Assembly (NCBI GenBank): GCA_028554645.1
Contig: JAQOOI010000019.1
Span: 124,001-188,000, forward strand
Reading direction: 5' to 3'
Source: Omphalotus guepiniiformis
Lineage: Eukaryota > Basidiomycota > Agaricomycetes > Agaricales > Omphalotaceae
Length of the DNA stretch: 64,000 nucleotides
The translations under genes and the position numbers were made by a program. This document shows positions 20,735-56,580 of this stretch, piece after piece. Position 1 is the first letter of the stretch. Every line of letters starts with the position of its first letter. The notes below the pieces were generated by a model. The model was not told the origin of the DNA. It was given only the letters and a program-made list of their open reading frames with translations, and searched no databases.

Positions 20735-21579
20735 GAAGGAATTGTCGTCCATGCCAATATTTCAACACGGGGAACAAGTGCAAGTTGTACTGTACTTCAA
20801 GTTCATCAAGCTTTCGCGAGGACAGATGTCCGAAGAACGCCATCGAGCTATTGAGGCGCACTTAATACACGCCGTTGAACGGTTGATCGAGGTGAGTATG
20901 ACCCTTCGCGTCTATTGTCGGTCATCCCACCGCCCCCGGGCCAATGACTCGCCGACTGACGTACATACCCTCTCCCTCTCTATGCTATCTCTATGCTAGC
21001 GCTGCAATTTATGCTTAAGATGCATATCTTATGCTCATGGTCAGACAGACGTCCGGGAGCATTTGAATTGTACGTGCTCTGCCATTGTTTCTCTGGCGCT
21101 GAATTGACGTCGCTAACTCGCAATTTACACCCCGCGATATGTTACTTCTGGAATCGAACATTTGAACTGTCCTCGATGAAGAGCTGCTACATATCCCCGT
21201 CCACGAATAATTCATAGTTTGAAATTCTCGATTGATATATGATTGAAGAGGCCTGTTTTAAACCGATGACACACTGCTGTACTCGTTGTGTTCTAGTGTA
21301 GCTGTTGCACGATGACATATGCCCAGCAGGTACATGGACGGTCATCGATTCATCAGTGGCACAAAGCAGGGACGTCTGCTACTTTCACCTCGTATTGGAA
21401 CTCGAATTAACCCGGACCCGCAGGCGACACATGAAGTTCGCAACTCATCGTCTCACGAACGCCTTCATAGAACTCCGACATGCCACAACCTGCTGCAAGT
21501 GCATATTTTGGAAGCTTCGTTTGGTATGTATTCCTTTCCGGTACTTTCTTTCATCCCGTGATGGGAGTTCGAGGAAAAG

Positions 21580-21587
21580 TATAAAGG
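21580..21587 (+). promoter_or_regulatory. TATA box of hydrophobin 2
   Basis: TATAAAGG, 109 nt before the ATG at 21689. Confidence 0.6.
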
Positions 21588-21688
21588 ACGCACCTCAAGC
21601 TTGTTTTCATCATTCGCCTTCGTTGCAAAGACTCAGTTCACAAAGCTCTCTTCGTAACCCACGAATAACCAACCAACCTACTAAAAAA

Positions 21689-22288
21689 ATGTTCGCTCGT
21701 CTCTCTGTCGTGACCTTGTCTCTCTTCACCATCCTTGCTGCCGCCGCTCCTAACGGAGGTAACCCCCCAGTGACGAAGACAGTGACTTTCACGGCGGTAG
21801 GTCGTCAGCTTGTCATGCGCGAGATATTGACTGACTAAATGCCCTCAACCGCTCTAGCCGGTGCCCACTGCTACTCAGCCTGCCAGCCAGTGCAACACTG
21901 GTCCTGTCCAATGCTGCCAGAGCGTTCAGCAAGTGAGTTCAGCCGTTCACATCTTTCGTGACCACCGCGGTCCACCGAGTTAGCTATATCTAATGGCGCT
22001 ATTTCATGTGTTTAGAGTGATAGCTCTGCAGTCACGAATCTTTTCGGCTTGCTCGGCATCGTACTGCAAGGCGTCGCCGTTCCCGTTGGAATCACTTGCA
22101 CCCCAATCGCCATCATCGGTATCGGAGGAGAATCTTGCTCTTCGCAGCCAGTCTGCTGTGAGAACAATAACTTCGTAAGTCTGCCAATTTCCCGACTCTC
22201 GACGACCTCAGACGACTGAAATTGACAACTTGAATTGTAGAACGGAGTTGTTGCTATCGGCTGTACCCCTGTTAACCTCAGCCTCTGA
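21689..22288 (+). CDS. Class I hydrophobin (hydrophobin 2)
   Basis: Four exons (21689-21796, 21858-21932, 22016-22174, 22241-22288) give 129 residues; all introns are phase 0. Signal peptide MFARLSVVTLSLFTILAAAA; mature chain begins about APNGGNPPVTKTVTF. Eight cysteines in the hydrophobin order: C (SQCNTG), CC (VQCCQS), C (GITCTPIAIIG), C (ESCSS), CC (VCCENN), C (IGCTP). Secreted, self-assembling surface protein by family. It is closest to hydrophobin 3 (29204): the start MFAR, the motif CCENNNF and exon lengths 75/159/48 are shared, and the surrounding DNA is duplicated too. The paralogue pair probably arose by tandem duplication before the copia element entered between them. Confidence 0.95.
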
Positions 22289-22872: not shown

Positions 22873-22877
22873 AGAAG

Positions 22878-23293
22878 TGTTGAGATGATGCCAAAGCTGT
22901 TGGTTGGGAGCCTCGAATCGTATGCCGTCTGGGCCTGATCGTATTTCCCCTATACCTATTTTTTCCTTTCGATACTTACAACTTAAATTCATTTACTCCT
23001 TTCGCTACCTACCTTTTAATTCACGGCACTCCGTGACGATACCCGCATTCCGCACATACACGTCGAATACACAATACTTATACTTTGGCGGTACCTACAT
23101 TGACCCTTAGTCTTTCACCTATACATCGGTGTAATTCTAAGGGTAAGTTTTACTTGAATATTCCTAACATACACGAGCTTACTGTCTTTGTATAGTCGTT
23201 ACTTACGTTGGTTTTACAGGTGAAATATAAACACGAGTCTTTCACCTATACATCGGTGTAATTCTAAGGTCGTTTACTTACGTTGGTTTTACA
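22878..23293 (+). repeat. 5' LTR of the copia element
   Basis: 416 bp, TG...CA. It differs from the 3' LTR at eight places, each a change of one base in a homopolymer run, with no substitution. It contains a tandem pair: 23109-23220 (with a 53-nt intron-like insert at 23143-23195) and 23236-23295 (the same segment without the insert). An AATATAAAC-like element lies between the two copies. Confidence 0.95.
23143..23195 (+). other. Intron-like segment inside the 5' LTR
   Basis: 53 nt starting GTAAGTTTT and ending TTTGTATAG, with CCTAAC (branch site) 28 nt before the acceptor AG. The flanks TTCTAAGG and TCGTTACTTACG are found directly joined in the second copy at 23236-23295, as splicing would join them. 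The same arrangement exists in the 3' LTR. Confidence 0.85.
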
Positions 23294-23379
23294 GGTTATG
23301 GGCCCCGCCCTCTGCTAAATACCAAAGACGTAAGCACCGATTACTGAAGACTGAAATTGAAGCTCGTATTCGTGATCCT

Positions 23380-26300
23380 GAACCGCTATGGCATCGAGTG
23401 GCTCGATACCACCCCCGTTAGCTGATGTTCCTGAGGATCAGAAATTTGACGGAGGTGGTCCGTATAGGATGGGCACCTGTTAGAACGACGAATAGAGGGG
23501 TGCACTCCGTGTACAAGGCCTTGACGGGTATAATCAACAACACAATCAAACAACCAGCCGCTGCTGCCACAACGCCCCCTTCCTGCTCCTACCTACCTCC
23601 GTTTATGCACTGGACCCGACCCTGGCTGAATGGAGGTTCCGTAACAATCGGGCAAAGGGAGTCATCGAGTCCCATATCGCCGACTTGACGTCTCTTATCC
23701 CAGACGCAGATGCGAAGAACGCGCATCAACTAATGGTTGCCCTAAATGAACTCTTTTGGAGCTTTGGATGATCTGCGAATGGTGGTTACCGAGCGTCGAC
23801 TCCGATCGTATGTTTACCAGGAGGGAGAGTCACTTGACGAGTTCTTCAGACAGCTGCGCATCCTTAGACGTGACGCTGTCGAGGCTGAAATGACATTGAT
23901 GATCCATCATTCCGGAAGATTGTCCTGGCCGCATTCCCTACGAAGACGTTCGACACTATCATCCAGAATATCGCGGCTACTGACACTATAAGACCTCCGC
24001 AGCAGTCATTCAGCAAATTTCGTTCGCATATGCTAGAGTTGAGGACCGATCCGACAAGGTAGCAGCAGGCAGTGAGTTTACCCCACAAGCTCATGCTGCA
24101 GCGATTGCGAGGATTGCAGAGTTGGAGAAGAACATGGCGGCTAAATACTCGAAGGCCAAGTCGGGAAAGAAGTGTGAGAATTGTTCGCGGGATGGGCATG
24201 TGAAGGAAGACTGCTATCGTAAGGGAGGAGGCAAGGAAGGACAATATCCGCCCTGGTGGAAAGGGAAGCGAGACGCGCAAGCGTCAACTACTTCTGACAA
24301 TAATTCCAACACGCCACAGCTAACACTGCAGTTACAGAACCCCCACAGCACTATGCTATGGTAGCTATCGCCTCTGTTGCCTCTAGGGGAGAGCTTCCAG
24401 GTCAGGTCTATGCCGATTCTGCTGCCTCTGACCATTTCTTTTCGCAACCGAGAGGACTTCGTCACCTATACTCCATGTGATCGCACGGGTCAGTCGTCTG
24501 AAGCGAACACGCCACTGCGTATTGCGGGGGTGGGACGCGCGCGTAAGACTTTTCGTCGACGCAGGTCGCAAGGTGGTCGTAACCTTCGAGAACGCTCTCC
24601 ATTGCCCAAACGTATCCTCAGATCTGATATCGATCGGTACACTTGACGAGCTCGGCTACAAAATTGTGTTCGGAGATAAGACAGCGAAGTTCTATACCCC
24701 GAAGGGCGCCCACATGATGACTGGTGTACGCCAGAATCGGCTGTATCTCCTAAAGGAGAAATCGAGGACCTCGCAGGGCTGCACACTTGGCACGTTCCGC
24801 GCTCGCTAAACCATCCCGTTGACCTCGCTACATGGCACCGACGATTTGCTCACGCGGGGGTAGATCGTATTAAAGACCTCCTGCGGAAGTCCTTGGTAGA
24901 TGGGCTGGAAGTGACAAAGACGGTGATGGAGGGAAAGTGCGTGGATTGCCTGGTAGGGAAAGCTGTTTAGACGCCCTTTTTGACTCTACCGTTCCGCGAG
25001 AAAACACGACCTCTAGAACGTGTCCACACCGACCTTACAGGCCCGATGCGAGTGATGGCTAAAGATGGTTGGTTATACTCCATGCCAATTGTGGATGGTT
25101 TCACGGCGATGACGAAAGACTTTTATCTGAAGAGCAAAGATTCGGATGACACGCTGGAGGCAATGGAAAGGTACAGGGCCCGGTCTGAAAATGAGACTGG
25201 ATGCAAGCTCTTGCGAGTACGCATCGATGGTGGGGGAGAATTCGGTAGTGCGAGTTGGAAGGCATGGGCAGACAAGCACGGCATCATACTCGAGCGCATC
25301 ACGCCATACTCATCTGCAGCGAATGGGGTTGCTGAACGACGACATGCCATTATTTTCGCCAAGGTCCGAACGATCCTCCAGGAAACTGGGCTCCCAGCAT
25401 ACTTGTGGAAATATGCAGCTTCGTATGTTGTCTACACGGAGAATCTCCTCCCTTCAACTCGAGCACTAGAGCGATACCTGCTGAATTGTGGATGAAGAAG
25501 AGGCAGGATGTCTCGCACCTTAGGCCGTCGGTGTGCGTGGATGGGCGACTATAGTGGATGGGTCCACCAGGAAAGCTGGATGCGAGAGCTGTGAGGGACG
25601 GTTGATCGGTTATGGGGAGCGTGGAACATACCTCCTCTACAATGCTACCGGTAAAGTCTTCACCAGTCGTGATGTTGTCTTTGACGAAGGTCTTGCTCAT
25701 CGTTCCTTGTTGCCTGTTGGAGGGGAGGAGAACGAGGAAGATGGACCAACACGCCACAATACCGCAAGCCCGGTTAACACCGACCCCATTAACCCCGCGA
25801 TCGGCCCTGACAACGTGCCCCCGAGGCCTCGACCCATATGGAGTTTCCCACTAACTCCGTACCCCCCCAATTCGTGCCTCGTCGATCGGCTCGAAACCGC
25901 ACCATATCTCCAGCCATTGCTCGAATCCCTCAACTCAGTAGCGCGAGAAGAGGATGCGAAGAGGATGGGAGAGGAATGGGCGACGAACGAACAACCACAG
26001 GCTCATTTCGCGGCTCTTGTTGGGCATATGAACGAGGTTGGGTGTGAAGATAACGTGGCGCTCTTCGGCTCTGGGTTTACCGCCTGTTCCCAAGACTTTC
26101 TCGAAGGCTATGGAGGACCCACAACGATGGGAATCGGCTATTGAGAAGGAGATAGGAAGGATGATGGAGTACGAGGTATTTGGCCCGCTTCAAGATCCTC
26201 CGCCTGGTGCAACCATCCTTTGTCCCGCTGTGGGTTTTTTGCTCATAAGATGAATGGCAAAGGGGAGATTGTTGACGAGAAGGCACGATTGGTGTGGTGA

Positions 26301-27664
26301 ATGGGGGACGACAGAAGGAAGGGTTGGACTACACGGAGACATTTGCGGCGGTAATGCGTTTTGAGTCTCTTCGTATGCTGATCGCCGTGTGGGTCCAGTT
26401 AGGGTTCCATATCTGGCAAATAGACTTTGCCTCTGCATACCTCAATGCCGACCTTGAGGAGGGAAATTTTAACGCATGGCCTCCAGAAGGATACGAGGGT
26501 AGAGGATCAGGAAAGGTGATGAGGATTAAGAAGTCGATATATGGGACGATGCAGGCTGGAAGGAATTGGTGGATGAAGTTGGACGGGACATATCAGGAGC
26601 TGGGCTACAAGAGGTCACAGGCTGACCAGTGCGTCAGAAGTCGGGTGTCAGAGTCAGGGGGAGACGATGACGGGTACGTACACGGATGACACCCTGGGAG
26701 GGTCGTCGTCTGTGGAGGAGATGAAGCGGGCAAAGAAGGAGATAGGGGAGACTTACAGGATAAAGGACACCGAGAGCGTACAGTTTGCGCTGGGCATGAG
26801 GCTTACTCACGACCGTTCTCTAGGCACCGCGTCACTTTCTATGGAAGCGTACTGGGAGCGCTTGCTTCTCAAACATGGGTTACAGGACCTTAAGCCTAAG
26901 TCTACGCCCCTTCCTCTTGGCCTCACTCTGTCGGCCAGCCAATCGCCCCAGTCGGAGGAGGATAAGTCTTCATGCGCGACAAACCCTATGCTGAATTACT
27001 GGGTGCTATTCAGTTTGGACAGGCAGCCTGTCGCCCTGACCTCACCTACGCTGCTAACCTTCTCAGTCGTTTCGTTCACAACCCGGGTCGTGCACACTGG
27101 AACGCGTTGCTTCATCTCGTACGTACATAAAACGGTACTAAAGGATATGCCATTACTTATCGTCGTGACGCTGACCACGGTCTCGATCCCATCACATATG
27201 TCGATGCCGACTATGCTGCGTGCGTGGATACAAGGAGGTCGACAACAGGAATCGTAAACCTTTATGGCAGGTGGTCCAACCTTCTGGATGTCTAAGAGGC
27301 AAGGAGTAGTGGCACTGTCAACGACGGAGGCAGAGTACATCGCATTGGCTAAAAGGAGCACAACAGGCGAGATGGGTTTCACAATTTCCTAGGCGAGATA
27401 GGACATGGTACACCTCTGCCCTCCATCTTACGTGCCGATAATCAAGGGGCTATCGCCCTTAGCAAGAATCCGAAGTTTCATGGCCGCGTTAAACATATCG
27501 ACATCCGCTTCCATTACCTCCGTGACGCCGTGGAGCAATCTGAACTCCGTGTCGATTATATACCTACCGAGGAGAACCCTGCAGATATATTGACGAAACC
27601 ATTGGGTCCAGCAACTCATCGCAAACAAGTAGAACTGTTGGGGCTGGCAGACATTCGAGCCTAG
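23380..27664 (+). pseudogene. Copia gag-pol region with many frame breaks
   Basis: Recognisable pieces in order: gag with a CCHC zinc knuckle (CENCSRDGHVKEDC, about 24171-24215); protease active site (YADSAASDHF, about 24408-24440); GAG-pre-integrase (LATWHRRFAHAGVDRI, about 24820-24870); integrase 24985-25495 with the DDE acidic residues in HTDLTGP, RIDGGGEF and NGVAERRH; reverse transcriptase about 26080-26720, with QIDFASAYLNADL and YTDD in place of the usual YVDD; RNase H about 27160-27660, ending near ENPADILTKPLG. The frame changes about every few hundred bases; several changes inspected lie at short homopolymer runs (for example near 27350 and 27394). Sequence error and decay are both possible. 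Confidence 0.9.
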
Positions 27665-27669
27665 GGGAG

Positions 27670-28087
27670 TGTTGAGATGATGCCAAAGCTGTTGGTTGGG
27701 AGCCTCGAATCGTATGCCGTCTGGGCCTGATCGTATTTCCCCTATTACCTATTTTTTCCTTTCGATACTTACAACTTAAATTCATTTACTCCTTTCCGCT
27801 ACCTACCTTTTAATTCACGGCACTCCGTGACGATACCCGCATTCCGCACATACACGTCGAATACACAATACTTATACTTTGCGGTACCTACATTGACCCT
27901 TAGTCTTTCACCTATACATCGGTGTAATTCTAAGGGTAAGTTTTACTTGAATATTCCTAACATACACGAGCTTACTGTTCTTTGTATAGTCCGTTACTTA
28001 CGTTGGTTTTACAGGTGAATATAAACACGAGTCTTTCACCTATACATCGGTGTAATTCTAAGGTCGTTACTTACGTTGGTTTTTACA
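27670..28087 (+). repeat. 3' LTR of the copia element
   Basis: 418 bp, with the same internal tandem of unspliced-like and spliced-like segments as the 5' LTR. Confidence 0.95.
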
Positions 28088-29098
28088 AGAAGGTTAGATA
28101 ATTGTCATCCAAGCCAATACTTATTTCAACACGGGGAACAAGTGCAAGTTGTAATGTACTTCAAGTTCATCAGACTTTCGCGGCGACAGATGTCCGAAGA
28201 GCGCCACTGAGTTCTCGAGGCGTACATACTACATTCAACTCGAAGCATTCCCCATCAAGATCCGAAGCTGCTGAACGCCTTTGAACGGTTGATTGAGGAT
28301 TGAGGTGAATACGACCCTGCGATGCCACCTTCAATCAGTCCACCGATGGTGTACCTTTTTGCACCCTAATGACTCGTCGACTGACGTACATATCCTCTCT
28401 GTGCTAGTGCTGCAAATGATGCTCAAGATGCATAACAAAGGCTCATGATCAGACATACGTGGTTCCGGGAGCAGTCAAGAATTGTAAGTACGTGCTCTGC
28501 AAGGCTCTGCATTGTTCTGGCGCTGAGTTGACGTCGCTAATTCGAACTTTACACCCCGACTGAGTATGATATATGAAGTGTTACTTTTGGAAACGGAACT
28601 CTGAACTGGCTTTGATGAAGAGTTGGTACATATCCCCGTTCACGAAAGATTCATAGTTTGAAATTTCCAAATGATATGATTCATTAGGTATGAAGTGTCC
28701 TGTTTTTTGGATGATGACGCACTCGTTACTTTCGAGTTCAGCAGGGTTTCTTGCGCGATGACATAGGCCCAGCAGGTACATGGACGGTCATCAGAACCGT
28801 CGCAGTGGCACAAAGCAGGAATGTCTGTGTCAAACTGACCCGGACCCGTAGGCGCCATATGATGTTCGCAAGTCATCGTCTCACGGATGCCCTCGTAGAA
28901 CTCTGACATGCTAGAACTTCGTATTTTGGAAGCTACATTTGGGTATGTATGCTTTACCGGTGTCACTTTCTACATGATAGACGTCGCGTTGAAACTCGAG
29001 CCCTTGCAATACAACAGATTACTGGCCACGGGTCCAATCTTCGCTTTTCATCGAATGAAGTTCTTTCCATGTTCTCCGGTTTACCCGTTAGAGTTGAG

Positions 29099-29106
29099 TA
29101 TAAAAG
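29099..29106 (+). promoter_or_regulatory. TATA box of hydrophobin 3
   Basis: TATAAAAG, 105 nt before the ATG at 29204. Confidence 0.6.
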
Positions 29107-29203
29107 CAGACCTGGTTTTCACTCTATTAGCATCGAAAGAAATCTCCTTCGATACATACATATACTACATAGCTCAACACCGCACTCTCACCAAAGAAAC
29201 GCA

Positions 29204-29798
29204 ATGTTCGCTCGTGTGTCTACTTTTGCTCTCTTCATTTTGTCTTCTTTTGCAGTTCTTGCTGTCGCCACGCCGGGAGGATGGCCTACTACTTCTTCGA
29301 AGCCCCCGGTGACGACCACGGTCACTGTTACTGCCACAGGTGTACGTACTCCGTTTCGTTTTCTTCGTGGCTGATTGCTGACATACGTGCTCAACGTCTC
29401 CAGCCTGCGACCACCACCACTGAGGCCGCGAGTCAATGCAATACCGGACCTGTTCAATGCTGCAACAGCGTCCAGAAGGTATGCGAGTTCGCTCATGAAA
29501 TCTCAAATACCGCTTTATTTGTCGGCTACAGGCCGACTCTCCTGCAGCCAGTACCCTCTTGGGATTGCTTGGAATCGTCGTCCAGGACGTGAACGTTCCC
29601 ATCGGTATCACCTGCTCCCCTATCAGCGTCATTGGTATCGGAGGAAACTCTTGCTCTGCGCAGCCTGTCTGCTGTGAGAACAACAACTTTGTATGTTATT
29701 CTTCTTCCAGTGCTCAGAATTGATACTTACTGAAATGAACTTGATTATAGAACGGGGTCGTCGCTATTGGATGTGTCCCTGTTAATCTCAACGCTTAA
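29204..29798 (+). CDS. Class I hydrophobin (hydrophobin 3)
   Basis: Four exons (29204-29341, 29404-29478, 29532-29690, 29751-29798) give 139 residues; all introns are phase 0. Signal peptide [20 protein letters not shown]; mature chain from about VATPGGW, with a Thr/Val-rich N-terminal stretch about ten residues longer than in hydrophobin 2. The eight-cysteine pattern is complete: C (SQCNTG), CC (VQCCNS), C ([11 protein letters not shown]), C (NSCSA), CC (VCCENN), C (IGCVP). Role as for other class I hydrophobins: secreted, assembling into amphipathic rodlet layers on the cell surface. Downstream of the copia element and part of the second tandem unit. Its promoter shares blocks with that of hydrophobin 2 but with many differences, so expression may differ. 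Confidence 0.95.
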
Positions 29799-49049: not shown

Positions 49050-52000
49050 TGAGGAGTTCATTGAAGGACAGCAAGAACAACCACCACCACCCCACACCCC
49101 CAGCCCTCGGTCTTAACTCAGATACGCTTGTTCCGTCCGTAGTTATCTCTTAAAATACTCGCATACTAGTCAAAAAGCCTCTCTGTCAAAAAAAAAAAAA
49201 ACCCCCAGCACGGCCACTTCCCAAAAGAAGAAACTGGCTCAAAAACCCCCGCTCGCCTAAAAATTCCCTCCGTCCTTCCAGAAAAAGACTGTGACGACCG
49301 AAATCAATCATTTCTCGGCTAAAAGCTATGTCGCTAACGGAAGACGAGCCGATGCTGTCTGAGCCAGCGGCTAACGCCGTCAACAACTCCCCTCGCCCTC
49401 CAACCACTCCCCCCAGACGACGCTCCCTCTTAGGCAATGCTGGCGATCTACCATTCTACACTCCACGAAAACCCAACCCGAGGCTCGCTACCCTCCTCGA
49501 ATCTCCTTCCACCCCTCGTACTCGAACTGTGGCTGTCAGACCCGTGGGGATGAAGCTCATCATCAGAGGAGCCTTCACCGAAACGGACCCAGTCCATGAC
49601 CCCGTTCGTACTGTGGAACTTGCTGTAGCTGAGATCCAGAAAAGGGACCAATCTCTTCGCTCAATAACTGTAGTGGCCCAGTCTTTCAAAGCCTCCTCCC
49701 CCCACCCCTCCACTTGCTACTTAGCTCTTGCCCCCTCCCTACGCCTCCCCGATGCCGAACCTCGTTGCGACCTCCTCGACCTGTGGAAATCATCTCTGGT
49801 CCAGACCTACTCTCATTGGGAGGTGGAATGGGTGCCGAACAAAGATGGAACAGACAAGCGGATGTGGCTTCGAATCTCAATTGCTAGCATCAGACCCAAA
49901 ACCAATCGCCCTCCCAACTCCTCCGACGACGCATGGGCAGAACACTGCCGGAAAACCATCACGGATTCGCTTAACGCTGGAGGAACCCTCGTTTACAGCA
50001 GCTTCAAAATGGGTTCGAGCGCCATCGTGGTGGAATTGGCTCACCCTCAGCATGTTGATGACATCCTTGCCCGCGGGACGCTGCAGGTTCCCGAGCTATC
50101 ATCCCTCCCTATCCCAGTCTACTCAACTCGTTACCACTCCCCCCAAAACCCCTTCGAAATCATTGTCACGGGCATCGGATCTTGGGAACCGACTCTCGAT
50201 GAAGTAATTCGTGAATGGGTCCACAAAAACTTTCGAAACTCCGAAGGCCTGTCGATAGTTGAAGAGCGCATCGTAGGTCAACAAGACGACGCTTACATCT
50301 TCTCTTGCGCCACCTGGGACGTCACTGCGAATGTACTCAGAGCCTCGGAACAGTTCAAAAACGAAATCGGCGCGTATTACACCGAACTCTCTGCCATCCA
50401 ACTACTGTATAACTTCAACGCTGCCCCCGCACCCGTGCGTCGAACCGCTCGTGAAGCCGTCAACGATGGCGCATCCAAAATCGCTACGAGTATGGACGAC
50501 ATATCCAAACGAATCGACCGCATGGAGAATCGGCTTGAGAAGTCAAATCGAGACCTTCGCGACGAGTTGGCCACTGATCGCGCAGCGAACCAGATCATGC
50601 AAACGAACGTGATGGCCATCAATGCGTCTATAACGGAGCTTCGCGAAGGCATGGGCTCCACGCAGCAACACCTTTATTCGCTCAGCCAAGCCATGGTAAT
50701 GGGTCAACAACGAGCGGCGCTGGAAGATAAAATACTCACCCTACGACTCCGAGTGCTGGAAGGCCTCGAATCCCAAGCGAAGGAAGTCGAGTTCAAGCAG
50801 GTCATCGAAGATCTTCAGGCGCAACTGGGCACCCTCCAGGAACACCAGAACTCCTTTGCTGGACTCCAACAGTCCGTGCAGCCCCGCGCTATCCCCCCCC
50901 CTCCAGCTCGAGAAGCCGTCGACGAACCCGCATCAACCCCGTCCGCACGCACCTCCACCACCAAGGCAACGCGAACGCGAACCACTCCCGTGCTGACTCG
51001 CTCCAACTCGTCGTCGTCTGGCGCGGCTTCCTCCAGCTCTCCGACCATTCGGATTCGTCCTCTAAGATCTTCCCCCAGAGATCGATCCATCACTCCTACC
51101 CCGCAGGCACCAAGAGCCAAGAAGTCCAGGGTATCGAAGGGTCAAGCAGAAGACGAAGACATGGAGGATGTCTCAACGGTAGCAAGTGAGGTAGGCAGAC
51201 AACCCCTTCACCCCTTATTTCCTCCCGGTCTTACAAAACAACGAACGACCCTAGTTACAACCGCGATGATGCCATCCATGACTCAAAAATACACACGCGG
51301 TCCTGACGGGACTAGTGGCTTTAAGAGAAGTAGAAGGTGGAGTGGAGTAACGCCGGTTGACAAAAGTTGTCGAGTTTATACCACTTCTTGCTCGCAAATT
51401 TCACGTACATGTTCTGCTAGTTTATCTGCCCCTCTCACTCATCGACAACCCCCTTTCTTACATTCAACCCTTTCTTGTATCTCGCTCTCGCCATTTCTTG
51501 TTATCCTAATATCACTTCTCTTAACACTCTCACTTGCTACCCGAGCACACGCGATAACCCCGACCTCAACATTTTCAATATACTCCCTCAATGCTAATGG
51601 ACTGGGACACAATGTAAAGCTTGCCCACATCAACAACGCCATCTCGGTCAACAAACCTCATGCATTTGTACTCAACGAAAGCAAAACCAAGGCGTCCGTA
51701 CTCAACGATCTTCCTACTTCGGAATACGAGGTATTTGAAGAACGCGCGGTCAAGTGTGATGGAAACTCCGGCCTATTCAAATGGGGCACTATTCTAGGGA
51801 TACGGAAAGATGTTCATGTCATTCAACGACTTATCATCACCGACCAGCAGCTACGAGGACGAGTGGTAGCCGTCGACGTTGCAATACAAACCACAGACGG
51901 CAAAGCATTTTCGCACCGAATCTTCGCCGTTTATGCCCCATGGGATCCCGGTTCCACCAACTCCAACGGATTCTGGCCCTCGCTGACAGCACTAGTCTCA

Positions 52001-55000
52001 ACCACGCCCACATCATGGTCTATGTCTGGAGACCTCAACGCAACGATCTCCCCAGCAGAACGAGCAACTGGAGGACAAGACGCTAGAGAACAATTCAAAA
52101 CCTTTCTGCTGACCACGGAAGCTGTCGACTTGTGGTCACTTAACGAGCATCGGAACAGGATGTATGACTGGACATGCAAAGCACGAGGATTGGACGCAGC
52201 TGGCGGAAGCATCATCGATCGGACGGTACTGTCAAAGAACGCTGCCTCAGATGCTCAAGTAATGGTTGCAGCGGGGAAAGACGACTACATCCCATGCACG
52301 GACCACAGGCCAATAATAAGCAAGCTCCTCCTTCTTCCGCCGAACAATGCATCCACCATTCTTCTCCCCCATCGCATCTCATTCAACAAGCCCCGAATAA
52401 AATTTCCACAACTGGCAGAAAAACATCGGCATCAGACCTTCCGGAACGCGTTCGATATTGAGGCACAAGAACACAAGCTACATGACATTGAAGTCACGGA
52501 CGACGCAACATTCCTAGACCTATACAACAAGGTAGGAAAAATCATGAAAACATGTGCGGAAGAAGCATACGGCAGGACCTCACAGACATTCAATCACGAT
52601 GTGAATCGCGGAAAAGTGACGAACGACAAAATACAGAGGATAGTCGGATACATTCGCTCGCTAGGAGCCGCCATACAAATCATAAAAGGAAGACTGAATC
52701 CCAACTACTCAATGGCATCCCGGTCAGCACACGACAAGATGCAACGGAAGGCAAGAGCAGCCAACCTTGACCCTTTACAATACACCATACAAGAGAGAAG
52801 GCGGGCACACAAGGAACTTTATCAAGAAAGGGCTAAGGAAATCAACGAGCGCGCGCTAAGAAGAGAGAAAGCAAGAGTAACGGCCACACTTCTACGGAAC
52901 TCTACCAAGCACCTGTTCAACAAGAACAAATATATTGCTCTGCCACGAGTAATAAAGGACCCGGCCTCAGATCAACTATTGGCAAATCCAGACGACGTCA
53001 AAAGCGCATCCCAGGAATATTGGTCAACACTCTATGCTCGACAGCCCCCTCCCAACATCCCAAAACCGTGGCTGACGACACCTTCAATAAACACCATACG
53101 GAATCGAGTCTTGGCAAAACCGTTCACATGGCCCAAACAAGCATCAATCGAAGACTTTCGAGCCCTACTACGTCGAGGTAATGCCCGACCGGCGCCAGGA
53201 CCCGACGAATGGGAAAAATGGATAATCAAGAATCTCTCTGACGAAGGCCTCCTCCTAATCATCAGACTACACAACTACATCACCCTCAAGTCACGATTCC
53301 CAGGTAATCTCAAGGACATGTGGCTCACAATGTTCCACAAACGCGGATTAAGAACAGACCTGACTAACTGGAGAGGAATTTTACTATCAAACTTTCTCGC
53401 CAACTCACCAACATCGTGGCTAAACTTTCGTCTAGTGCCCTATATCGCTGAACTACGCATCCTACCTGACACGCAAGTGGCTACACAAAAGGACGTCCAA
53501 ACTCGGGATCTTATGAGCTTTCTAGCTGGTGTCAAGTGCTGGTCGAATCGACACAAGCAAACCGTCTACGCCATCAAACGAGATCAAATGAAAGGGTTCG
53601 ACTACCTTGCACCAGAGGGATTTTACGACGCAATCACAGCCTACGGTCTGCCCCACCAAATCATCGAATTGGACAAGGCAGCTCAAACGGACACCAACTG
53701 CTTCATTCGGACAGCCTACGGAGTAACGGACCCCATCACGATCAACGGAGTAACTAAGCAGGGCGGCCCTCTCTCACCACTGAAATCAACGCTCACAACC
53801 AGTCTCGGCCATCACTACCTAAACGACCTCCTACTTCAAGACAAGGACGCTGTCATCATCACGACCGAATCATTCATCAAAGGTGATCCCCATCTACCGG
53901 CAGACAGCATCAACATCACGATAGGAATGACCGAAGCGACGGACGACTCTTATCTCTTCTCGCGATCCCTCCCATCACTCCGGCTGATTACCCTACTAAT
54001 GGAACGGTTCCAATTTGCCTACGGATGGCTCACTCAATGGGCCAAAACAAGGGCATATGTGTTAAACCCCGAAGGTCCTCAACCCCCGACAGTATTATTC
54101 GACTCTATCACAAACGAAAAGGGGGTGGATCCATTAAATGTCACCGTCCAAGAAGTACCACTGATCGTTAATGAACTAGAGTTTTTGAGAGCAAAAGTAG
54201 ACGATCCGGCAACCAGACACCAAGAACTACACGCAATCATCAACGACTTCGCTTTTCCGCGTCTGAGCAGAAGGGCCCCAATAACACTCATTCGGAAGAT
54301 TGTATCACAAAACATTGTGTCAAGATGCCGAGCTCTACTCTCACTACAGCCAATTCGACAGGTCGATGCAGAGAATTTGGATCGTCTGATGACAAGAAGA
54401 ATTCACGACCAGCTAGGCTTCCCTTTTAACCCCAATACAGACATACTGACGTTACCCATCCATATGAACGGGCTAGGATTTCCTTCAATCGCACGGATCA
54501 ACGCAAGCCTGGCGGTTGAGGGCTTACGCCGGGATCTTAACCACCACATTCCCGCATACCGAACAATGGCACGACTCACGTTGGCAGATTGGACATGCAC
54601 AATGAACAACTGCATATCACCACTGGAAGGAATGGGCCTGAAGACTCACACCCACGCCTCGAGACTAAGCAAAATCCCGGCGGCATGGTTAACGGCACAC
54701 AGGATCTTATGCGACCATAGGAACGACATCTCGTTATGTGCTACAGACAAGTCGGAAATGCTCAGAGGTGAAGTGTCGATATCTCACCACGTATCCGTCT
54801 ATAATCACTGCACCATGGTTACAGACGAACGTCCAGATGGAAATACAATTCGCTCACTGAGAGCCAAAGGCATCAGAAAACTAGCTGACATTGGACGGTG
54901 GAGGATCAACGCAACCAACGGAAAAGGGAAGTTCACAAAGCGAGGTGATATCAACACGGCAGGATGGTCCCAGGCAGCGCAGAAAAATCTAGAGAAACTC

Positions 55001-56580
55001 TACACCATGCTAAGTAACTTTGATCTACGCTGGATACATGAAGGCTCAGTCGATATCTTTACAGATCGTATAACACGACGAAAGATAGCAGAGGAATATA
55101 TCCTACGACTAGCTGAAACAACCCAGCTACAGAGCTCGAAAGTAACTGAGATGAGAGGACAGATATGGGGATCTGACGGCTCCATGATTCCAGCCGCGGC
55201 CACCATCTTCGACGAGAAAATGGTCACGGCTGCCATTACAGGACCCAAAACGCTGGTAGTCAAACTGGGTGGAAACTCAGCTTTCATCACACAAGGCGAA
55301 CTCATGGCATTGATCATGGGTTCCTTGCTGGCCGATAACTCCGTGTCGTCACCCAAGATATACGCAGACCCCTTGACCATCATAAGAATCATCGACGATT
55401 GTCTACTCAACCCAACTCACCACATGCGTCTACGCCACATGAACGCTAGATCCTACTACAAGTGGCTCCTCCACACCCTACACGATAAACCCATCCACAT
55501 CGAACACACGAAAGCCCACACCAACAGCTCCTCCACGCCCTCACGAATCAACGCGGAAGCGGATCATTATGCGTCGACAGGTCAGAAATATCTTGACAGT
55601 ATACCGGTTGCACCCATCCCAACGTTCTACATGGACCAATACACACTCCACTCCCGAAATCTCGGCTGGATCGAATCCAGCACGACTCACTATGTGCAGC
55701 AGGTCATGGAAAGAGACATGGCGAGGAAACTAGCAACGGCACACACCCTCCGGATGTCGAAATGGCTTTACGAGTCACGTCCCCCACTCGAATACCCATA
55801 CACGAAGGCATACTCAGCATACTCGGCCACGATACAGCTATATGCTCGCTCTGGACAGCTAGCAACAGCAGATACACTAGCTAGAAGAGGGAAGATAGCC
55901 GACGAAACGTGCAGACTCGGGTGTTCAGCACTGGAAGACATGCACCATATATTTGTCGAATGTCAGCACTACACGAAGTGGAGGAAAGACGCGGCGGAAG
56001 AAGTCTTAGCGAGAACGCAGAGGAAATTGGAGGAAAAGGGAATCAATAACGAAGCAGCAGGGCTTCTGCTAACCGGAGCTAAGTCCCTATTTTCCGCTCA
56101 CGAAGAGATATGGCCACTGCAAAGACCCTTCTATTATCTAGGCTTGACACCACCCATCGAGAAGCTGATAACGAGACCGTCCCATATCTCCCCAATCGAA
56201 CACGAACGTCTTCTTCATCACATCTCAGCAGACTGGCATCTACAGGCTATACGACTCGCAGGAAGGATCTTCGGAGACTATCAGAGGGAAATGGCAAAGC
56301 AGAACACATCACGTAGAACAACAAGGAGTAGGGTTTTCCTCGCTCGATGAAGGGAGTTAATAAACCGCCCCGAGAAGAGGTTTTTCATCCCCTCCGCTTA
56401 TGATACATCTTACGATACATTTACGATACTTTTTACACCTTCGCACAAAACCAGCAATGACTGGCATTTTACGATACTTTTATTACCTACATAACAGTCC
56501 GGTTCGTCGAGGTCGATTATCTACCTTAGTCTCTCGTAGACGTAGACGAATATCAACATTGAAAACATTGAAAACAGTTT
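49050..56580 (+). mobile_element. LINE-type non-LTR retrotransposon (full coding length)
   Basis: A single ORF of 7,023 nt with endonuclease, reverse transcriptase and RNase H domains, preceded by a C/A-rich leader with an A12-13 run (about 49189-49201). It is followed by a short 3' region holding several TACGATAC repeats (56405-56480) and GTCTCTCGTAGACGTAGACG. The exact ends and target-site duplication were not found, so the limits are approximate. Codon and base use (C/A-rich on the plus strand) differ from the neighbouring genes. Confidence 0.9.
49328..56350 (+). CDS. LINE polyprotein: ORF1-like region, endonuclease, RT, RNase H, zinc finger
   Basis: 2,340 codons without a stop. Residues 1-390: Pro/Arg-rich start, then folded segments. 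About 390-520: coiled coil (ISKRIDRMENRLEKSNRDLR). About 530-640: Ser/Thr/Pro/Arg linker. About 690-745: an odd Ser/Cys-rich joint with a hydrophobic run (FLVILISLLLTLSLATRAHA). About 748-1005: exonuclease-endonuclease-phosphatase fold with SLNANG, NESKTK, SGDLNATI and CTDHRP. About 1280-1580: reverse transcriptase with KRDQMKGFD, KQGGPLSP and ATDDSYLF (a Thr before the DD where Ala is usual). About 1945-2085: RNase H with GSDGSM, GELMAL, YADP and NAEAD. About 2194-2212: C-terminal zinc finger CRLGCSALEDMHHIFVEC. These enzymes nick target DNA and copy the element RNA in place. All catalytic acids seen are present, so the copy could be active or recently so. Confidence 0.95.
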   Translation: MSLTEDEPMLSEPAANAVNNSPRPPTTPPRRRSLLGNAGDLPFYTPRKPNPRLATLLESPSTPRTRTVAVRPVGMKLIIRGAFTETDPVHDPVRTVELAVAEIQKRDQSLRSITVVAQSFKASSPHPSTCYLALAPSLRLPDAEPRCDLLDLWKSSLVQTYSHWEVEWVPNKDGTDKRMWLRISIASIRPKTNRPPNSSDDAWAEHCRKTITDSLNAGGTLVYSSFKMGSSAIVVELAHPQHVDDILARGTLQVPELSSLPIPVYSTRYHSPQNPFEIIVTGIGSWEPTLDEVIREWVHKNFRNSEGLSIVEERIVGQQDDAYIFSCATWDVTANVLRASEQFKNEIGAYYTELSAIQLLYNFNAAPAPVRRTAREAVNDGASKIATSMDDISKRIDRMENRLEKSNRDLRDELATDRAANQIMQTNVMAINASITELREGMGSTQQHLYSLSQAMVMGQQRAALEDKILTLRLRVLEGLESQAKEVEFKQVIEDLQAQLGTLQEHQNSFAGLQQSVQPRAIPPPPAREAVDEPASTPSARTSTTKATRTRTTPVLTRSNSSSSGAASSSSPTIRIRPLRSSPRDRSITPTPQAPRAKKSRVSKGQAEDEDMEDVSTVASEVGRQPLHPLFPPGLTKQRTTLVTTAMMPSMTQKYTRGPDGTSGFKRSRRWSGVTPVDKSCRVYTTSCSQISRTCSASLSAPLTHRQPPFLHSTLSCISLSPFLVILISLLLTLSLATRAHAITPTSTFSIYSLNANGLGHNVKLAHINNAISVNKPHAFVLNESKTKASVLNDLPTSEYEVFEERAVKCDGNSGLFKWGTILGIRKDVHVIQRLIITDQQLRGRVVAVDVAIQTTDGKAFSHRIFAVYAPWDPGSTNSNGFWPSLTALVSTTPTSWSMSGDLNATISPAERATGGQDAREQFKTFLLTTEAVDLWSLNEHRNRMYDWTCKARGLDAAGGSIIDRTVLSKNAASDAQVMVAAGKDDYIPCTDHRPIISKLLLLPPNNASTILLPHRISFNKPRIKFPQLAEKHRHQTFRNAFDIEAQEHKLHDIEVTDDATFLDLYNKVGKIMKTCAEEAYGRTSQTFNHDVNRGKVTNDKIQRIVGYIRSLGAAIQIIKGRLNPNYSMASRSAHDKMQRKARAANLDPLQYTIQERRRAHKELYQERAKEINERALRREKARVTATLLRNSTKHLFNKNKYIALPRVIKDPASDQLLANPDDVKSASQEYWSTLYARQPPPNIPKPWLTTPSINTIRNRVLAKPFTWPKQASIEDFRALLRRGNARPAPGPDEWEKWIIKNLSDEGLLLIIRLHNYITLKSRFPGNLKDMWLTMFHKRGLRTDLTNWRGILLSNFLANSPTSWLNFRLVPYIAELRILPDTQVATQKDVQTRDLMSFLAGVKCWSNRHKQTVYAIKRDQMKGFDYLAPEGFYDAITAYGLPHQIIELDKAAQTDTNCFIRTAYGVTDPITINGVTKQGGPLSPLKSTLTTSLGHHYLNDLLLQDKDAVIITTESFIKGDPHLPADSINITIGMTEATDDSYLFSRSLPSLRLITLLMERFQFAYGWLTQWAKTRAYVLNPEGPQPPTVLFDSITNEKGVDPLNVTVQEVPLIVNELEFLRAKVDDPATRHQELHAIINDFAFPRLSRRAPITLIRKIVSQNIVSRCRALLSLQPIRQVDAENLDRLMTRRIHDQLGFPFNPNTDILTLPIHMNGLGFPSIARINASLAVEGLRRDLNHHIPAYRTMARLTLADWTCTMNNCISPLEGMGLKTHTHASRLSKIPAAWLTAHRILCDHRNDISLCATDKSEMLRGEVSISHHVSVYNHCTMVTDERPDGNTIRSLRAKGIRKLADIGRWRINATNGKGKFTKRGDINTAGWSQAAQKNLEKLYTMLSNFDLRWIHEGSVDIFTDRITRRKIAEEYILRLAETTQLQSSKVTEMRGQIWGSDGSMIPAAATIFDEKMVTAAITGPKTLVVKLGGNSAFITQGELMALIMGSLLADNSVSSPKIYADPLTIIRIIDDCLLNPTHHMRLRHMNARSYYKWLLHTLHDKPIHIEHTKAHTNSSSTPSRINAEADHYASTGQKYLDSIPVAPIPTFYMDQYTLHSRNLGWIESSTTHYVQQVMERDMARKLATAHTLRMSKWLYESRPPLEYPYTKAYSAYSATIQLYARSGQLATADTLARRGKIADETCRLGCSALEDMHHIFVECQHYTKWRKDAAEEVLARTQRKLEEKGINNEAAGLLLTGAKSLFSAHEEIWPLQRPFYYLGLTPPIEKLITRPSHISPIEHERLLHHISADWHLQAIRLAGRIFGDYQREMAKQNTSRRTTRSRVFLAR

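What the first reader, a model, noticed from the sequence alone, without database searches (positions are those of the whole stretch)
23109..23295. Copia LTR carries an unspliced and a spliced copy of the same segment side by side
The segment starting AGTCTTTCACC occurs twice in each LTR. In the first copy the text between TTCTAAGG and TCGTTACTTACG is a 53-nt block with GTAAGT at its start, CCTAAC 28 nt before its end and TATAG at its end: a textbook fungal intron. In the second copy those flanks are joined directly. This is what one expects if a spliced element transcript was reverse-transcribed and its 5' (R/U5) cDNA became fused to an LTR that still held the unspliced form, for instance by a misaligned first-strand transfer. 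A retrotransposon that splices inside its own LTR and then fixes both forms in tandem is not something I know as described.
Basis: partly seen in the sequence, partly recalled or inferred. Interest (0 to 1): 0.88.

Follow-up and report, generated by a model that had tools for sequence, protein, structure and literature searches.

The report
Retrotransposon ends rebuilt by RNA splicing
A group of jumping genes in a mushroom-type fungus carries, in each of its terminal repeats, an intron-containing stretch followed by a spliced copy of itself, and comparison of many relatives suggests that the spliced copy is rewritten from processed RNA whenever the element copies itself, which would make splicing part of its replication.

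Summary
In both window LTRs a stretch A-intron-B-linker is followed by A-B with the intron missing to the base. Of 63 primer-site ends read in the same genome, 24 have this layout (20 with two inferred introns, 4 of a simpler one-intron kind; 22 after dropping near-duplicates), with very different letters. In 22 of 22, copy 1 is closer to its own copy 2 (92-100%) than to any other LTR's copy 1 (59-95%). In eight sister pairs 79 columns changed in both copies together and 0 showed a copy-specific pattern. So copy 2 is renewed repeatedly; it is not a one-off fusion. TATA stands before copy 1 (17/22), not copy 2 (1/22). Copy 1 ends AG|GT and copy 2 ends like a 3' splice site, so a second intron (linker-A-B) could be removed. 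The mature RNA would start A-B-primer site, and its strong-stop cDNA would restore A-B at first-strand transfer. A hairpin whose 5' arm lies upstream of the inferred start reaches the donor only in 3' LTR RNA, which could explain why the intron survives there. Splicing, RNA ends and hairpin function are inferred: there are no RNA data, and one genome was studied.

The parts
22873..22877 (+). 5' target-site duplication AGAAG
   Evidence: repeated at 28088-28092
22878..23293 (+). 5' LTR (TG...CA, 416 nt)
   Evidence: aligned with the 3' LTR, eight single-base gaps, no substitution
23079..23083 (+). TATA-like box about 30 nt before copy 1
   Evidence: TATA at -38..-22 of copy 1 in 17 of 22 LTRs, of copy 2 in 1 of 22
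23103..23110 (+). 5' arm of the hairpin, six of eight bases upstream of the inferred start
   Evidence: pairs with 23137-23144 across the donor; 144 of 152 cells pair over 19 two-intron LTRs
23109..23142 (+). A1: exon 1 / R, copy 1; inferred transcription start at 23109
   Evidence: sequence; TATA spacing and TTAG/TCAG context
23143..23195 (+). intron 1 (GTAAGT...CCTAAC...TATAG, 53 nt)
   Evidence: exact block missing from copy 2; GT-AG in 15 of 15 unconstrained cases in this genome
23196..23219 (+). B1: exon 2, ends ACAG|GT
23220..23235 (+). linker: begins with the inferred donor of intron 2 (GTGAAA; GTGAAT in the 3' LTR); A+T-rich, possible poly(A) signal (inference)
   Evidence: linkers 72% A+T over 19 LTRs
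23220..23294 (+). inferred intron 2 = linker + A2 + B2, acceptor TTTTACAG at the LTR/primer-site border
   Evidence: homology ends at AG or AGGT with copy 1 reading AG|GT in 16 of 18 LTRs without snapping; CTNAY near the 3' end in 19 of 22
23236..23269 (+). A2: copy 2 of exon 1 (inferred R at the RNA 3' end)
   Evidence: identical to A1
23270..23293 (+). B2: copy 2 of exon 2, joined to A2 without the intron
   Evidence: identical to B1 apart from one extra T
23294..23308 (+). primer binding site GGTTATGGGCCCCGC, complementary to the anticodon arm of initiator-tRNA-Met-like genes
   Evidence: three of four pattern hits read GCGCGCGGGGCCCATAACCC, the fourth GCGCGCAGGGCCCATAACCC
26231..26912 (+). 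Copia-type reverse transcriptase region (RVT_2), frame broken
   Evidence: places C19:150231-150644 (over the cut-off) and 150652-150912 (below it)
27670..28087 (+). 3' LTR (418 nt), same layout
27902..27935 (+). A1 of the 3' LTR
27936..27989 (+). intron 1 kept in the 3' LTR (54 nt)
27990..28014 (+). B1 of the 3' LTR
28015..28029 (+). linker of the 3' LTR (GTGAATATAAACACG)
28030..28087 (+). A2-B2 of the 3' LTR; the LTR ends ACA and AGAAG follows, so the acceptor ACAG of the 5' copy is not formed there
28088..28092 (+). 3' target-site duplication AGAAG

Best explanation
The LTR has a split R region that is rebuilt by splicing in each replication cycle. Inferred course: transcription starts at A1; the 5' end of the RNA loses intron 1 and intron 2 (linker-A2-B2), leaving A-B joined to the primer site (or to a further U5 piece C). 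Reverse transcription, primed by the 5' half of initiator tRNA-Met, makes a strong-stop cDNA of this spliced A-B(-C). The RNA's 3' end lies in A2 of the 3' LTR, whose A1-intron-B1-linker stays unspliced. First-strand transfer pairs the cDNA with A2, so the new LTR is U3-A1-intron-B1-linker (from the 3' LTR) followed by A-B-C (a spliced copy of the 5' LTR's copy 1). Copy 2 is overwritten each cycle and does not pass on its own changes. A hairpin of bases just upstream of the start with the end of exon 1 can close only in read-through RNA of the 3' LTR, because RNA begun at A1 lacks its 5' arm; that would let one donor be used at the 5' end and masked at the 3' end. The linker's poly(A)-like sequence would leave with intron 2 at the 5' end and serve at the 3' end. 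Shown: the layout, the exact GT-AG blocks, concerted copies, TATA and hairpin asymmetry. Inferred: splicing, RNA ends, strand transfer, hairpin effect, poly(A) role.
For: Block search without a splice rule: 15 LTRs, 15 of 15 allow GT-AG, 0 of 132 shuffles. Copy 1 is nearer its own copy 2 than any other LTR's copy 1 in 22 of 22. Eight disjoint sister pairs, 458 columns: 79 changed in both copies at once, 0 copy-specific columns shared by both relatives, 6 in one copy only, 18 gap columns set aside; the other five pairs tried also gave 0 copy-specific. Differences between the copies within 24 LTRs: 13 transitions and 2 one-base gaps, no transversion, once L029 is read as its one inserted G (the script, cutting at fixed length, printed 15 transitions and 2 transversions), as mutations after insertion would give. 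Homology runs right to AG (L044, L047, L050, L058, L067, L069) or AGGT (10 LTRs) with AG|GT in copy 1 in 16 of 18; L029 and L031 stop a few bases early at a base change. CTNAY in the last 45 nt: intron 1 19 of 19 (shuffled mean 9.3, max 15), intron 2 19 of 22 (mean 7.5, max 14); stricter CTWAY 17 of 19 and 13 of 22. TATA 17/22 before A1, 1/22 before A2; bases -1 to -6 pair in 106/114 cells at copy 1, 32/114 at copy 2; pair -1 is C-G in 16 and T-A in 3, pair -5 C-G, A-T or T-A in 16 of 19. Arms permuted among LTRs: 0 of 2000 reach the observed energy. 3' LTRs keep the intron where seen in full, the collapsed ones apart.
Against: No RNA evidence at all, and one genome. Collapsed LTRs exist (U3-A-B-C, no intron, no duplication): L046 and L062, both LTRs of each, and the end L080. 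The gags of L046 and L062 are 93-96% like intact relatives, so such elements could still insert and the layout is not strictly needed. 5 of 22 lack a TATA in the range tested. 7 of 22 intron-2 donors are GTACTG, weak against the usual consensus. In the tables the end of B1 was set at the nearest AGGT and the start of A1 at the nearest AG, so 22 of 22 GT donors there is partly by construction (unsnapped counts: 16 of 18 ends; homology starts at AG in 11 of 18 and 1-3 bases earlier in 7). The hairpin register was chosen for best pairing per LTR, which favours it over slid controls (32-52 of 152). The permutation does not correct for relatedness: 9 of 19 share the same 8-base arm, 15 of 19 its inner six. 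The donor's first base is paired in 16 of 19 (not in L022, L057, L069), and in the one-intron kind the stem stops 5 nt before the donor. The own arm ranks first in only 5 of 22, and L022 pairs worse than average. Most 3' LTRs were seen as coordinates only.
Confidence: 0.77

Rival explanations
1. One-off event: spliced R/U5 cDNA was fused once to an LTR with the unspliced form, and the tandem has been inherited passively since.
For: The window element alone fits this; its two LTRs have the same layout.
Against: Groups with barely related gags share the layout, but each has its own letters in both copies: 79 concerted columns against 0 copy-specific ones.
Confidence: 0.05
2. The same fusion arises anew in separate lineages (a recurrent accident with spliced strong-stop cDNA), not in every cycle.
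For: Same sequence relations; collapsed LTRs show that the layout can be lost.
Against: The dual-use features (B1|GT, branch-point-like motif and AG in B, upstream hairpin arm) recur across the set and would have to be ready beforehand; the linkers of L029, L031, L039, L048, L050, L053 and L054 all begin GTACTGT, so the duplication looks inherited there.
Confidence: 0.08
3. The copies are kept alike by DNA gene conversion or by reverse-transcriptase template switching between A1-B1 and A2-B2, without splicing; the block is only a spacer.
For: Short direct repeats can recombine; collapsed LTRs could be deletions between A1 and A2.
Against: Does not explain why the block is a 51-59 nt GT-AG unit with a branch-point-like motif, why homology runs to AG|GT, why none of the 24 LTRs has the block in copy 2, nor the hairpin arm and TATA at copy 1 only.
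Confidence: 0.07
4. A2 is a second, independent start site; A1-intron-B1 is a decayed or regulatory upstream copy.
For: Homology of the copies begins at, or 1-3 bases before, the inferred start base in 18 of 18; BARE of barley makes RNAs of different use from two promoters (PMC3735527, passages).
Against: TATA before A2 in 1 of 22 against 17 of 22 before A1; nothing would then keep A1-B1 and A2-B2 alike.
Confidence: 0.03

Closest known systems
Foamy virus LTR (major splice donor in R; PMC3694450, abstract and section 11 read)
   Same: A splice donor lies between transcription start and poly(A) signal; 13 bases upstream of the start, present only in 3' LTR RNA, change the fold around the donor, so 5' and 3' LTR behave differently.
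   Different: By the parts read, the point there is suppression of the 5' poly(A) site; an intron wholly inside the LTR or a spliced copy written back is not described in them. Host and element class differ.
BARE and Drosophila copia (Ty1/copia elements with a spliced gag RNA; PMC3735527, passages read)
   Same: Ty1/copia elements whose RNA is spliced. Priming of Drosophila copia by an internal stretch of initiator tRNA-Met is recalled.
   Different: Their splicing serves Gag production; the BARE paper says that for replication spliced RNA must be kept from packaging and reverse transcription. Here the spliced RNA would be the replicating one.
HTLV-1/BLV type retroviruses with a splice donor in R (recalled, not looked up)
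   Same: Splice donor inside the LTR.
   Different: Acceptors outside the LTR; no duplicated R-U5 (recalled).
Penelope-like elements that keep introns in terminal repeats (recalled; PMC3846280 seen only as a search listing)
   Same: Introns survive retrotransposition.
   Different: Different enzyme class and insertion route; no spliced copy beside the unspliced one is known to me.

Membership tests
Ty1/copia LTR retrotransposon | Copia-type reverse transcriptase (RVT_2) | tested here: met
   PF07727 at window 26231-26912 in two broken pieces, the first over the cut-off; 99 matches in the genome
Ty1/copia LTR retrotransposon | LTRs TG...CA with 5-bp target duplication | tested here: met
   22878-23293 and 27670-28087 with AGAAG; L002/L004 LTRs with GTTTC read by eye
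Ty1/copia LTR retrotransposon | integrase before reverse transcriptase in pol | not tested
   no integrase model was run
Copia-like half-tRNA priming | primer site next to the LTR complementary to the anticodon arm of initiator tRNA-Met | tested here: met
   15-nt complement in the window to three of four initiator-tRNA-like pattern hits; the hits were not run through a tRNA finder
Spliceosomal intron (intron 1) | GT...AG, branch-point motif, fungal length | tested here: met
   GT in 18 of 19 (L022 AT), AG 19 of 19, CTNAY 19 of 19, 51-59 nt; GT-AG was required by the search but not by that (15 of 15)
Spliceosomal intron (intron 1) | removed from RNA | not testable with these tools
   no RNA reads; the exact absence in copy 2 is indirect evidence
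Spliceosomal intron (intron 2, linker-A2-B2) | GT...AG, branch-point motif, fungal length | tested here: met
   AG|GT at the unsnapped end of homology in 16 of 18, CTNAY 19 of 22, 55-94 nt
Spliceosomal intron (intron 2, linker-A2-B2) | removed from RNA | not testable with these tools
   no RNA reads; required by the model only
Classical U3-R-U5 LTR | a single R-U5 per LTR | tested here: not met
   the R-U5-like stretch is present twice per LTR, once with a block
Foamy-virus-like 5'/3' LTR switch | upstream bases present only in 3' LTR RNA fold over the splice donor | tested here: inconclusive
   predicted fold with varying, compensated pairs; first donor base paired in 16 of 19; no probing or mutant data

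The most novel reading that the evidence does not exclude
A lineage of LTR retrotransposons in which pre-mRNA splicing is a step of replication itself: each new LTR carries a freshly spliced cDNA of its own first half. A hairpin spanning the start site leaves one splice donor open in 5' LTR RNA and masks it in 3' LTR RNA, so the element separates the promoter copy and the poly(A) copy of R and rejoins them through an exon that doubles as the next 3' splice site.
Probability: 0.65. Interest if true: 0.93.

Novelty: new variant of a known kind. Interest (0 to 1): 0.86.

Why it matters
LTR elements are generally thought to copy unspliced genomic RNA; here the spliced RNA would be the template that restores the ends. 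It would add a way of solving an old problem, how identical LTRs start transcripts at one end and finish them at the other, and it makes sharp, cheap predictions for any RNA data set of this fungus. Each LTR would also be a natural record that stores the unspliced and the spliced form of the same RNA, in many lineages with different letters.

Tried and rejected
Chance or assembly artefact: rejected, because 24 of 63 examined primer-site ends have the layout with different letters and 0 of 132 shuffles do. Block as an independent insertion: no shifted position among 20 two-intron LTRs. Relatives outside this genome: the one exact primer-site match in viral contigs (L099) is GC-rich, bacterial-looking sequence without the layout by eye; fungal genomes are not among the DNA collections held, so no outside relative was tested. 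MAFFT on the hairpin segments did not bring the arms of L047, L057, L064 and L069 into register, so pairs were counted in a script. Duplex energies were a weak test: the own arm ranks first in 5 of 22. Literature: nine searches ran; no title or abstract start in their listings describes an intron and its spliced copy inside one LTR; the library lacks most subscription journals. PMC5445492 on fungal Copia has no word beginning intron or splic in its main text (find). A Pfam scan of the window's long frame 49328-56347 gave one weak zf-RVT match below its cut-off.

Not done: 36 of the 63 ends were set aside as lacking the layout, by detector and by eye; 7 of the 15 extra primer-site hits were not read; the LTRs of many of the 99 RVT_2 matches were not examined.

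Full report
What is there. The window holds one Copia element, 22878-28087, with LTRs of 416 and 418 nt, ends TG...CA and target duplication AGAAG. Each LTR holds A1 - block of 53/54 nt - B1 - linker - A2 - B2 just before its end. The block starts GTAAGT, holds CCTAAC and ends TATAG; A2-B2 lacks it to the base. The LTRs differ from one another by eight single-base gaps and no substitution, so the insertion is probably young and run-length errors are likely.

Relatives. 63 primer-site ends were examined: 61 and two (L069, L080). 20 have the two-intron layout: 18 found by the automatic search, which required GT-AG, plus the window's own L012 and the old copy L022 by hand. 4 have a one-intron layout (L045, L049, L052, L055: A1 - GTATGT...linker - A2 - short C), set by hand. 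3 are collapsed (U3-A-B-C: L046, L062, L080). 36 lack it: 22 of the L008 type, 8 of the L010 type, 6 others. When the block is sought without any splice rule, 15 LTRs show it and 15 of 15 allow GT...AG, 0 of 132 shuffled ends giving a hit. Below, 22 LTRs remain after dropping L026 and L055 as near-duplicates; some of the 22 are sisters (L012 and L032, for example, are about 82% alike over the LTR), so they are not 22 independent families.

Concerted copies. In 22 of 22, copy 1 is closest to its own copy 2: 92-100%, against 59-95% for the best other LTR's copy 1. In eight disjoint sister pairs (458 columns) 79 columns differ between relatives in both copies at once, 0 show the pattern of two old independent copies, 6 differ in one copy only and 18 hold gaps; five further, overlapping pairs also gave 0. 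Differences between copies inside 24 LTRs are 13 transitions and 2 one-base gaps when L029 is read as one inserted base; the script itself printed 15 transitions and 2 transversions because its fixed-length cut misaligned L029; one of the 13, in L047, depends on placing the donor two bases on. Gag regions of the main groups are 21-31% alike over the longer alignments (short stretches up to 65%), and L057, L064 and L069 match no other group at 1e-3. The layout is therefore old while the copies are young: something rewrites copy 2 from copy 1 minus the block.

Second intron. For spliced A-B to be copied next to the primer site, linker, A2 and B2 must leave the 5' RNA; if only intron 1 left, each cycle would add a unit (inference). 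Without any snapping, homology of the two copies runs to AG (6 LTRs, all with an extra piece C after copy 2) or AGGT (10 LTRs, where C or the primer site itself starts GT), with AG|GT in copy 1, in 16 of 18; L029 and L031 stop a few bases short at a base change. The one-intron LTRs L045, L049, L052 and L055 also read AG|GT in copy 1 and AG|AT or AG|TT in copy 2. The last 45 nt of this inferred intron hold CTNAY in 19 of 22 (shuffled mean 7.5, max 14) and the stricter CTWAY in 13 of 22 (mean 4.7, max 10). B is thus an exon in copy 1 and looks like a 3' splice site in copy 2. The intron would be 55-94 nt. Some donors (GTACTG, 7 of 22) are weak. In the window the acceptor's A is the last base of the LTR and its G the first base of the primer site; the 3' LTR reads ACA then AGAAG.

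Start and switch. TATA stands at -38 to -22 of A1 in 17 of 22 and of A2 in 1 of 22. In the 19 two-intron LTRs bases -6 to +2 pair with the end of exon 1 and the donor region: 144 of 152 cells, 32-52 in slid controls, the register having been chosen per LTR for best pairing. The six upstream bases pair in 106 of 114 cells at copy 1 and 32 of 114 at copy 2. Pairs vary with compensation: -1 C-G in 16 and T-A in 3; -4 C-G in 18 and T-A in 1; -5 C-G 5, A-T 9, T-A 2, unpaired 3. The donor's first base is paired in 16 of 19. In the one-intron kind the stem (CACGAAGGTCAA with TTGACCTTCGTG in L045) stops 5 nt before the donor. Predicted energies of the two-intron segments are -14.8 to -27.1 kcal/mol with 16 upstream bases and -4.1 to -14.0 from the start of homology on. 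Thus RNA begun at A1 cannot close the full stem, while RNA read through U3 into the 3' LTR can. Foamy viruses use 13 upstream bases in a similar way (PMC3694450, abstract and section 11). The hairpin may instead, or also, hide A1 so that the cDNA lands on A2; the data do not separate these.

3' LTRs. The intron is kept, by letters, in the window's 3' LTR and in L004. By coordinates, 19 of the 21 places matched by the L054 end (both LTRs of several elements among them) run across the intron without a gap of its size; the other two (C63:858205, C41:169803) are partial. The pairs of L067 and L058 and of L069 and the C77:1793073/1798810 element are also full. For the one-intron kind both LTRs of L055, L049 and L045 align over the stretch. 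One partial match (C58:35624) was not read. The collapsed elements at C22 and C20 have both LTRs collapsed; their gags are 93-96% like L058 and L067. Collapse is what transfer to A1 would give, but deletion between A1 and A2 would look the same. L080 is collapsed while a full LTR of the same kind lies 19 kb downstream; whether the two belong to one element is open.

Primer. GGTTATGGGCCCCGC after the LTR is the complement of part of GCGCGCGGGGCCCATAACCC in three of four initiator-tRNA-like pattern hits; the fourth reads GCGCGCAGGGCCCATAACCC. The same kind of primer is recalled for Drosophila copia.

Judgement. The layout, its intron-like borders and the concerted copies are shown. That splicing and first-strand transfer produce them is the simplest account, but it rests on sequence alone, in one genome. 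The host is a basidiomycete, probably of the Agaricales, by one protein search whose best named hits are Paramarasmius palmivorus and Moniliophthora roreri, mostly at 30-37% over most of the length; it was not identified further.

Noticed in passing
22878-28087: The two LTRs differ only by eight single-base gaps beside the same base, and the RVT_2 region is in two broken pieces, which points to run-length errors of the assembly as well as, or instead of, decay.
   Followed up: partly
20758-22280 and 28122-29790: A diverged duplicated stretch (pieces 74-95% alike) with a small secreted Cys-rich protein, hydrophobin-like by eye; the Copia element sits between the two copies.
   Followed up: no
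49328-56350: Open frame of 2340 aa that reads by eye like a LINE; Pfam gave only a zf-RVT match below its cut-off.
   Followed up: partly
L046, L062, L080: Collapsed LTR ends (U3-A-B-C, no intron, no duplication) in groups whose relatives keep the full layout.
   Followed up: partly
L045, L049, L052, L055: A simpler one-intron kind in which exon A itself ends as donor in copy 1 and as acceptor in copy 2; the gags of L045, L049 and L052 also match the abundant L008 group that lacks the layout (31-40%).
   Followed up: partly
L010, L014, L030: These LTR ends hold CGGTGAGTATGCACTTACCGTCTTGTAG, a short GT...AG stretch without duplication; perhaps another intron-like unit in an LTR.
   Followed up: no
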